DNA of 64,000 bases, taken from positions 124,001 through 188,000 of the forward strand of contig NZ_JAEUFG010000009.1 of assembly GCF_018588585.1 (NCBI RefSeq), written 5' to 3'. This document shows, one piece after another, positions 22,384-26,839 of the stretch (its first letter is position 1; the number at the start of each line of letters is the position of its first letter). The DNA is from Bacillus sp. SM2101. GTDB taxonomy: Bacteria > Bacillota > Bacilli > Bacillales > SM2101. The notes under the pieces are model-generated. The model was not told the origin of the DNA and did not search any database. It was given only the letters and a program-made list of their open reading frames with translations. Made by a program: the position numbers and the translations under genes.

Positions 22384-22552
22384 AGGCACTTTTCAAAAAC
22401 TTTATTGCTGCTTCATTTAAATTTAAGTAACTTATGCGTATTTTACGGTTTTTAAGTATCTAAAGATGAAAAGATGTCCCGAACGTTAAAATATTCGTGT
22501 TCAGCTCTTATTACGCAAAGCACCAATTAATTTGCTGCGAAAACGACAGTGG
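22384..22552 (-). repeat. Dispersed MITE-like repeat, copy 5 (tandem, left)
   Basis: AAGGCACTTTTCAAAAACTTT through ATTACGCAAAGCACCAATTA to GCGAAAACGACAG. The block AAAGATGAAAAGATGTCCCG is identical in copy 6. Confidence 0.85.
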
Positions 22553-22710
22553 TAAGGGCTCTTTTCAAAAACTGTTTCTTTTTTTGAATTTGAGCAACTG
22601 GTGTGTATTTTTTATGATTGTTCAAGTCTTTAAAGATGAAAAGATGTCCCGAACATTAAATATATACGTGTTTAGTTCTTATTACGCAAAGCAACAATTA
22701 ATGCTGAATC
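22553..22710 (-). repeat. Dispersed MITE-like repeat, copy 6 (tandem, right)
   Basis: AAGGGCTCTTTTCAAAAACTG through GAGCAACTGGTGTGTATT and ATTACGCAAAGCAACAATTA. The right terminus is degraded. It directly follows copy 5 in the same orientation. Confidence 0.85.
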
Positions 22711-22866: not shown

Positions 22867-22896
22867 TACCAAAGAGCACCTTAGAGTCATAGAATA
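22867..22896 (+). promoter_or_regulatory. Sigma-K-like promoter
   Basis: TACC at 22867-22870 (consensus mACm), then 17 bases, then CATAGAATA at 22888-22896 (consensus CATAnnnTA). The predicted transcript start near 22903 leaves a short leader before GGGGGG and the ATG at 22924. Confidence 0.55.
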
Positions 22897-22923
22897 CATT
22901 ATGACATAAATGGGGGGAATAAA

Positions 22924-24315
22924 ATGAGAAAACAAGTATGTAAGTGTCTACAAAACGTTGAAGAGACATTAATTAAAACAAAACAATTTACATTAAATCC
23001 GAATACATCTGGCAGTGTTGAGAAAGAGATCCCTTTGTCACCACAATTTCTCCAATTAGCAGAGCTGCAGCTAAAAGATGTAAGAATGACAGACAAAGTA
23101 TCTATTCATGCAACTGTTGGTTCTAGAGTAGAAGAGGGAAGTGGAGACACAGATATAATTTATAAAGTTTATAGAAATGTGATTAGTGAAGCCAATATTA
23201 TATTTAGTGGTAGAGTTGAATTAGATGATAATCAGAATGATTTTAGCATTGATAGCTTTTTTCATGTGGATATAAATCCGTCATTGGGCAATGTGAAGTA
23301 TATCCTTACCGTTGAGCTTATAGAACAAAGCCAAGAGCAGGTTTTTGTAGTTGGTCCTATTACTTTCGTTATAGAGCAAATTAGAGCAGAACTAAAAAGC
23401 AAATGCATGTGTACTCAAGCTGTTAAACAGACAGTTGTAGATTTAAATCACATAGTTTTATCACCGAACGAGTCTGGAAGCTTCAAAGATGGGATGATTC
23501 CTGTAGGACCAATGTTTTTAAGGCTGGCAGAGTTATCTTTAGATCAAATAAGACCAAATGATATTGTTCTCTTGAAGACTACCGTAGGTACAGAAGCGCT
23601 TATGCAAAGTCCAATATTGTTGTATAAAATATTTCGAAATTCGGTTAATGATGCTAATCTCATTTTTAGTTCAAGAACGGAAATAGATGAAACATTTCAA
23701 GATGAGTTTAGTATTGATAGCTTCATTCATGTAGATATTAAACCAACATTAGGAAAGGTAAAATACATCCTAACTGTTGAGGTTGAAACATCTTTTAATG
23801 ACGAAGCTTCTGTAGTAGGACCACTATCTTTTGTGATTCAGCAAATTAGAACAGAGCAAAGTGGTAAATGCACATGTAACCTAGCTTCCAATATAGAGCT
23901 AGTCGATGTGAATCAGTTCGTATTACCAACAAATGTATCTGAGAGTATTATGATGGACATAGGTATGGACCCACTGGAATTAGCACGTTCATCTTTTGAA
24001 AAAATAAGACCGAGCGACATGATCGTAATAAATGCTACCGTTGGAGCAAAAGTTTCAGATGGTGGAGGTAATCCTGATTTGTTATATAAGGTGTATAGGA
24101 ATTCTATCGTTGCTTCTAATCTTATCTTCAGTGCTAAAAGTGAACTAGATGAGGGTGGTAATGATTTTGCGATAGATAGCTTTACTCATGTAGATACAAA
24201 ACCGACGCTAGGTAAAGTATCATATATACTAACAGTTGAAAACATTGAAGCTAATACACAAGCACAAGTCATTGGACCTATCACATTCAAGTTAGACCAG
24301 TATAGGAAAATATAA
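22924..24315 (+). CDS. Three-repeat beta-rich protein, candidate spore surface protein
   Basis: 463 residues in three tandem units of about 150. Each starts with a CxC pair (CKC, CMC, CTC) and carries VxxxQFxLxPNxSxS, then IhATVGxxV, then YKVYRNxIxxANLIFS. Each ends DFxIDSFxHVDxxPTLGxVxYILTVE and VxGPITFxIxQ. No signal peptide or membrane helix. The alternating hydrophobic pattern suggests three jelly-roll-like beta domains, and the cysteine pairs could cross-link. A sigma-K-like promoter points to mother-cell expression late in sporulation, hence coat or exosporium. Family name not known to me. Confidence 0.8.
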   Translation: MRKQVCKCLQNVEETLIKTKQFTLNPNTSGSVEKEIPLSPQFLQLAELQLKDVRMTDKVSIHATVGSRVEEGSGDTDIIYKVYRNVISEANIIFSGRVELDDNQNDFSIDSFFHVDINPSLGNVKYILTVELIEQSQEQVFVVGPITFVIEQIRAELKSKCMCTQAVKQTVVDLNHIVLSPNESGSFKDGMIPVGPMFLRLAELSLDQIRPNDIVLLKTTVGTEALMQSPILLYKIFRNSVNDANLIFSSRTEIDETFQDEFSIDSFIHVDIKPTLGKVKYILTVEVETSFNDEASVVGPLSFVIQQIRTEQSGKCTCNLASNIELVDVNQFVLPTNVSESIMMDIGMDPLELARSSFEKIRPSDMIVINATVGAKVSDGGGNPDLLYKVYRNSIVASNLIFSAKSELDEGGNDFAIDSFTHVDTKPTLGKVSYILTVENIEANTQAQVIGPITFKLDQYRKI

Positions 24316-26222: not shown

Positions 26223-26263
26223 GAATGTATCAATGTTTTTAGAACGGTGGTGCAAGGCGGGTG

Positions 26264-26839
26264 GTGACTGAGGGGAAAGAATTAGAAGTTCTTGGTGCGT
26301 GGATTCAAGTTGTTGGGAGTGTTATAGCTGCAATTGGGCAATCTGGACGGGTTGATGAACAAGCCGTTAATGACCAACTTATTGTGCTAGGAAATTCTTT
26401 AAAAGCTGTAGGGAACTCTTTTAGAGCTATAGGAAGAGAAAAACAACAACTAGCTGAAAATATCAAAGGTAATGATTTGATTATTTTTGGGAATTGGTTA
26501 CTAGCAGGAGGGTCTGCTGCAAGTGCTGTAGGTGCTGCAATGATGGAGGCACAAAATGAAGATGAAGGTTTGCAAATTGGAGTGATTGGTAATAGTGTAC
26601 AATCACTCGGGGCTTCATTCGGCGCAGTGGGTGCTGTTTTTAGGTCATCAGATCTGTTGGCTCTAGGAAATAGCATTCAATCTTTCGGTGCGGCTCTGTT
26701 AGCAATTGGTATTCTTTACATAATAAATGGCAAAGAGAAAATGGGAAGAATTTTGTCAAGTTTAGGTAGTTGGCTTCAAGCTATTGGAGCATCTATTACA
26801 GCGATTGCACTTACTAAAACGTTAAACAATAATCGTTAA
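26264..26839 (+). CDS. Six-repeat glycine-rich hydrophobic protein (DUF6944-like), copy 2
   Basis: About 191 residues in six units of about 30, e.g. LEVLGAWIQVVGSVIAAIG, NSIQSFGAALLAIG and LGSWLQAIGASITAIALTKT. Colinear with copy 1 at 6040 over the full length, including the ends, so the two are paralogues. The GTG at 26264 (or 26261) follows AAGGCGG. No signal peptide; no conserved neighbour between the two loci. Function unknown. Confidence 0.8.
   Translation: MTEGKELEVLGAWIQVVGSVIAAIGQSGRVDEQAVNDQLIVLGNSLKAVGNSFRAIGREKQQLAENIKGNDLIIFGNWLLAGGSAASAVGAAMMEAQNEDEGLQIGVIGNSVQSLGASFGAVGAVFRSSDLLALGNSIQSFGAALLAIGILYIINGKEKMGRILSSLGSWLQAIGASITAIALTKTLNNNR

What the first reader, a model, noticed from the sequence alone, without database searches (positions are those of the whole stretch)
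22867..24315. Triple-repeat protein behind a sigma-K-like promoter: candidate new spore coat/exosporium component
Each 150-residue unit begins with a CxC pair and has a beta-sandwich-like pattern. There is no signal peptide. TACC-17-CATAGAATA fits the sigma-K promoter, and the transcript would start 20 bases before the ATG. Cysteine pairs could cross-link units at the spore surface.
Basis: partly seen in the sequence, partly recalled or inferred. Interest (0 to 1): 0.6.

Follow-up and report, generated by a model that had tools for sequence, protein, structure and literature searches.

The report
Three-in-one ExsC-like spore surface protein
This gene encodes three fused copies of a spore-surface protein domain (ExsC) predicted to fold like proteins that normally assemble in threes, so one chain probably makes the whole trimer; gene trees suggest this fusion arose at least twice in spore-forming bacteria.

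Summary
ORF 22924-24315 (463 aa) has three ~155-aa repeats (46-48% identical), no hydrophobic leader, and only six cysteines, forming one CxC pair at the start of each repeat. TACC-N17-CATAGAATA ends 27 nt before the ATG.

The spore-surface reading is well supported, but the domain is not a new kind: it belongs to the ExsC family. I located the Brevibacillus laterosporus exsC gene by its published primers; its product was found by mass spectrometry in spore-coat extracts and matches the window repeats (hhalign probability 96.5). Sigma-K -10 boxes are enriched upstream of family genes: 10/22, then 24/61 in a second set, against 10/149 controls.

One repeat modelled with AlphaFold2 (pLDDT 81) is a TNF/C1q-like jelly roll, close to trimeric lectins and the exosporium protein BxpB (Z 11.5). 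Such domains form trimers. Among the relatives recovered, ORFs carry one domain or exactly three, and a single origin of the two triple lineages is rejected (p-AU 0.0017). Best reading: a natural single-chain pseudotrimer, perhaps tied to the cysteine-rich coat through its CxC pairs. The fold is predicted; trimer closure, cross-linking and spore location are inferred.

The parts
22924..24315 (+). triple ExsC-domain protein, 463 aa
22924..23391 (+). domain 1 (residues 1-156)
23392..23865 (+). domain 2 (residues 157-314); modelled as a TNF/C1q-like jelly roll
23866..24312 (+). domain 3 (residues 315-463)
22939..22947 (+). CxC pair 1 (Cys6, Cys8)
23404..23412 (+). CxC pair 2 (Cys161, Cys163)
23869..23877 (+). 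CxC pair 3 (Cys316, Cys318)
22867..22870 (+). TACC, candidate sigma-K -35 element
   Evidence: conserved in the sister species
22888..22896 (+). CATAGAATA, candidate sigma-K -10 element
   Evidence: family-wide enrichment
22912..22917 (+). ribosome-binding site GGGGGG

Best explanation
A spore-surface (outer coat or exosporium) protein made late in the mother cell from a sigma-K promoter. Each of its three domains is an ExsC-family domain with a TNF/C1q-like jelly-roll fold. This fold normally works as a trimer, and in the BclA cap the chain ends lie together on the side facing the basal layer, so the three domains of one chain most likely pack against each other as a single-chain pseudotrimer. 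The three CxC pairs, each just before a domain's first strand, would lie together near that base, placed to form disulfides with the cysteine-rich coat scaffold. Shown here: the repeats, homology to a mass-spectrometry-identified ExsC, promoter enrichment in the family, the predicted fold. Inferred: location on this species' spores (about 0.85 likely), intramolecular trimer (about 0.6), disulfide anchoring (about 0.45).
For: B. laterosporus exsC primers match without mismatch at a family ORF whose product aligns with the window family; ExsC is in the spore-surface proteome (PMC5335551). An ExsC-like profile without window sequences hits all three domains at 6e-21 to 1e-18. Fold: TNF-like lectin Z 12.8, BxpB Z 11.5 rmsd 2.5, ExsFA Z 10.8. 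The same domain caps collagen-like proteins, as trimerising TNF/C1q domains do. Domain counts: 87 ORFs with one, 12 with three, none truly with two. Two origins of the triple: common clade rejected, p-AU 0.0017. Sigma-K -10 boxes: 10/22 and 24/61 against 10/149. Host has sigK, cotE, cotZ-family gene. BxpB trimer and BclA cap geometry (PMC10470788); single-chain TNF with GGGGS linkers works (PMC3215731).
Against: No structure of the whole chain: the full-length AlphaFold2 run failed (pLDDT 35). The domain model rests on 10 sequences. The tree has two long branches. In B. laterosporus the rise of exsC transcript in sporulation was slight and not significant, which is not what strict late sigma-K control predicts. 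The triple genes of G548 lack CxC pairs, so anchoring by CxC is not general. No spore proteomics for this species.
Confidence: 0.6

Rival explanations
1. Spore-surface ExsC-like protein, but the three domains are beads on a string: each trimerises with domains of other chains, making a cross-linked mesh instead of a closed single-chain trimer.
For: Same homology, fold and promoter evidence. The stretch between domains, about 12 residues in the model of repeat 2, would also allow this. Exosporium basal layers are two-dimensional arrays.
Against: Does not explain why tandem forms always have three domains and arose as three in two lineages; a mesh would work with two or four.
Confidence: 0.25
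2. The domain is a sugar-binding module: a TNF-like lectin on the spore that binds spore or host glycans, and the triple gives high avidity.
For: Nearest folds are the TNF-like lectins PLTL and BC2L-C-N; ExsC-like genes in other genomes sit among glycosyltransferase and sulfotransferase genes.
Against: Sequence identity to those lectins is 6-10% and no binding-site residues were compared; BxpB has the same fold and is a structural protein. It does not exclude the main explanation.
Confidence: 0.15
3. Not a spore protein: an ordinary vegetative cytoplasmic protein, with a chance promoter match.
For: CATANNNTA is common in this AT-rich DNA; location was not measured.
Against: Family-wide enrichment of the box at the right distance, including the paralog and the separate triple genes; homology to a spore protein found by mass spectrometry.
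Confidence: 0.06

Closest known systems
ExsC, exosporium protein C (B. laterosporus; also reported in B. cereus and B. thuringiensis)
   Same: Same domain by profile comparison; sigma-K-like -10 box upstream; no signal peptide
   Different: ExsC is one domain of about 140 aa; here three domains in one chain, each headed by a CxC pair
BxpB/ExsFA, TNF-like trimeric exosporium protein
   Same: Predicted fold (Z 11.5 and 10.8); BxpB's only two cysteines lie in a disordered N-terminal stretch before the domain (PMC10470788)
   Different: No detectable sequence similarity; BxpB is a homotrimer of single-domain chains
BclA and other collagen-like spore proteins with a C1q-like cap
   Same: Relatives of this domain cap collagen-like proteins in other genomes
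   Different: No collagen region here
HcC1qDC6 of a pearl mussel; engineered single-chain TNF
   Same: Three tandem TNF/C1q domains in one chain (PMC5519582; PMC3215731)
   Different: Eukaryotic immune protein, and a man-made fusion; neither is a spore protein, and no sequence relation was tested

Membership tests
ExsC domain family | sequence homology to an experimentally identified ExsC | tested here: met
   B. laterosporus exsC found by its published primers; hhalign probability 96.5, E 8e-10; ExsC-like profile hits 6e-21 to 1e-18
ExsC domain family | homology to the original B. cereus ExsC | not tested
   No B. cereus-group ExsC sequence was available in a named record
ExsC itself (single-domain protein of about 140 aa) | one domain per chain | tested here: not met
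   Three domains; so filed as an ExsC-domain protein, not as ExsC
ExsC domain family | present on spores | not testable with these tools
   Needs proteomics; only the homolog was shown
TNF/C1q-like superfamily | jelly-roll fold | tested here: met
   By prediction only: pLDDT 81, Z up to 12.8 over 121-130 residues
TNF/C1q-like superfamily | threefold assembly | not testable with these tools
   No assembly prediction was possible; indirect: three domains per chain, collagen-cap relatives
BxpB/ExsFA family | sequence similarity to BxpB | tested here: inconclusive
   No PDB sequence match with the protein or with two profiles; fold similarity only
CotY/CotZ/ExsY cysteine-rich scaffold (PF10612) | PF10612 match and many cysteines | tested here: not met
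   No PF10612 match; only six cysteines
S/L-ENA and F-ENA endospore appendage subunits | match to their Pfam families (DUF3992, DUF4183) | tested here: not met
   No such Pfam match with the protein, its repeats or relatives
sigma-K regulon | -10/-35 sigma-K consensus upstream | tested here: met
   TACC-N17-CATAGAATA; enrichment across the family
sigma-K regulon | SigK-dependent transcription | not testable with these tools
   Needs a reporter in a sigK mutant

The most novel reading that the evidence does not exclude
Spore formers evolved, at least twice independently, natural single-chain trimers of a TNF/C1q-like domain on the spore surface; here each third carries its own CxC anchor, giving one covalent three-legged building block.
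Probability: 0.55. Interest if true: 0.68.

Novelty: new variant of a known kind. Interest (0 to 1): 0.57.

Why it matters
ExsC is known from spore proteomics, but in the libraries searched it has no family model and no fold. Giving it the TNF/C1q fold puts another exosporium protein beside BxpB and the BclA cap, links it to collagen-like spore proteins that carry the same cap, and makes its trimer state directly testable. Natural three-in-one chains let the three positions of a trimer be changed one at a time, which is useful for studying spore-shell assembly and for displaying proteins on spores.

Tried and rejected
Pfam, NCBIfam and PDB sequence searches of the protein gave nothing significant. 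The genome-contig scan with the whole protein found nothing, and two alignments were too varied to scan with. The full-length AlphaFold2 model was worthless (pLDDT 35) and was not used. I looked at whether the ExsC-like gene of G184, a 5.5-Mb genome, lies near an inosine hydrolase gene as in B. thuringiensis: no such gene in the stretch read, so no B. cereus-group identity is claimed. No ENA structure appeared among the top fold matches; this is not evidence against relation. Phage records hold no relative at the sensitivity used. One apparent two-domain ORF (L142) proved to be a three-domain gene cut by the end of the locus.

Full report
Observation. The window carries an intact ORF at 22924-24315 (463 aa) between a periplasmic-binding-type gene and a lipase. 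It consists of three repeats of about 155 residues, 46-48% identical to each other. The protein has only six cysteines, at 6/8, 161/163 and 316/318: one CxC pair at the head of each repeat, exactly 155 residues apart; there is no hydrophobic leader. TACC-N17-CATAGAATA ends 27 nt before the ATG. The gene is under purifying selection between two species (dN/dS 0.33).

Relatives. The host genome has a paralog of the same three-domain build on another contig (54-56% identical; L010 8541-9923, GTG start), and the one other species of the genus in the sample has both. No Pfam or NCBIfam model covers the domain. A profile of the repeats finds relatives in 41 of 397 sampled genomes of the order and 48 of 398 of the class, nearly all single-domain. 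One, on a Peribacillus plasmid, is annotated 'exosporium protein C'; it matches the repeats at hhalign probability 97.7. A second profile, made only of such ExsC-like proteins and no window sequence, hits all three window domains at 6e-21 to 1e-18.

Tie to experiment. A product name alone is thin evidence, so I used the exsC primers printed by the Brevibacillus laterosporus study PMC5335551. Both qPCR primers and the forward cloning primer match without mismatch in locus L155 of genome G529, at the very ORF that the family profiles pick out. Its product (MVRILDYNATQ...) aligns with the window family at probability 96.5, E 8e-10, and a CATATTTTA box lies upstream of it. That study identified ExsC by LC-MS/MS in extracts of the spore coat and parasporal body. 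So the domain family contains a protein physically found on spores. B. thuringiensis exsC is listed as a basal-layer gene in a study that reports SigK consensus sites upstream of exosporium genes (PMC4750369); I could not compare its sequence.

Regulation. CATANNNTA alone is not rare here (78 against 71 expected). But 8-45 nt upstream of start codons it occurs in 10 of 22 family genes against 10 of 149 other genes from the same loci (P 1e-5). In a second set not used before it occurs in 24 of 61 (P 4e-8), and in 6 of 7 intact triple-domain genes of genome G548 (P 3e-6). Genes within these sets are partly related to each other, so the P values are optimistic; start codons were set by eye in the first set and by script in the second. 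Some of the ten control hits are glycan genes next to ExsC-like genes (L048), which may themselves be sporulation genes. The host has a sigK over the family cut-off, cotE and a cotZ-family gene. Against strict late control, the rise of exsC transcript in B. laterosporus was slight and not significant.

Fold. AlphaFold2 on repeat 2, with the other two repeats and seven Sutcliffiella-type relatives as alignment, gave pLDDT 81 and an all-beta model of eight long strands. The best structural matches are TNF-like lectins (PLTL Z 12.8; BC2L-C-N 11.8), the TNF family, and the exosporium proteins BxpB (8d02, Z 11.5, rmsd 2.5 over 121 residues) and ExsFA (7r5i, Z 10.8). BxpB and the BclA cap are trimers, and in the BclA cap the chain ends come together on the side facing the basal layer (PMC10470788). 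The same domain also caps collagen-like proteins in several other genomes, as TNF/C1q domains do.

Why three. Among distinct ORFs in the loci fetched, 87 have one domain and 12 have three; the one apparent two-domain ORF is a three-domain gene cut by the end of its locus. The triple ORFs come from this genus (two genes in each of two species) and from G548, a genome of another order with eight such genes, one of them with its third domain split by a frameshift. In the tree the window repeats group together, and the G548 repeats group with single-domain ExsC relatives; holding all triples as one clade is rejected (p-AU 0.0017), although two rows have long branches. Repeats of the G548 genes cluster by position, so triplication came before gene multiplication there. 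Two separate origins of exactly three domains, in a fold that works as a trimer, are best explained by a single-chain pseudotrimer. Engineered single-chain TNF, three domains joined by GGGGS, is a working precedent (PMC3215731), and a mussel protein with three tandem C1q domains exists (PMC5519582).

Mechanism proposed. Late mother-cell expression from sigma-K; folding of one chain into a threefold unit; the three CxC pairs, each just before a domain's first strand, lie together at the base and could form disulfides with the cysteine-rich scaffold. The first step rests on comparative sequence evidence and the fold on prediction; closure of the trimer and disulfide anchoring are inference. The G548 triple genes have no CxC pairs, so anchoring must differ there.

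Verdict. A real gene, rightly read as a spore-surface candidate, belonging to the ExsC domain family in a three-in-one architecture that I have not found described in bacteria in the papers searched.

Noticed in passing
L010 8541-9923 (G000:C7): Paralog of the window gene, also three domains and CxC pairs, GTG start, CATATAATA 29 nt upstream with AC at spacing 16; conserved in the sister species.
   Followed up: yes
L046 7081-7524 (G000:C37): A third, distant single-domain relative of 147 aa in the host genome (E 3e-6).
   Followed up: partly
L144 3693-13557 and L145 2038-4760 (genome G548): Eight genes in two clusters, each with three ExsC-like domains and no CxC; in one the third domain is split by a frameshift.
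   Followed up: yes
L146 1610-4621, L147 3889-5325, L148 3590-5392, L149 4067-5185: Collagen-like proteins whose C-terminal cap is a relative of this domain and has no Pfam name.
   Followed up: partly
upstream of many relatives, e.g. L018-L026, L041, L057, L094, L155: A recurring GTCCAAGCA / GACCAAGCA element about 15-25 nt before the -10 position; could be the -35 element of these promoters or a regulator site.
   Followed up: no
L048, L053, L056, L106, L108, L111, L114: ExsC-like genes of other Bacillales sit among glycosyltransferases, a UDP-GlcNAc 2-epimerase, sulfotransferases and, in some, sulfate-activation genes; several of these neighbours also carry CATANNNTA boxes. Looks like spore glycan clusters.
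   Followed up: partly
window 22440-22530 and 22610-22700: Two similar non-coding stretches (AAAGATGAAAAGATGTCCCGAAC..., then ...TTCTTATTACGCAAAGCA...) about 170 bp apart upstream of the gene, seen by eye.
   Followed up: no
window 26261-26839: DUF6944 protein of 192 aa (Pfam E 6.5e-37) of unknown function, downstream of the lipase gene.
   Followed up: no
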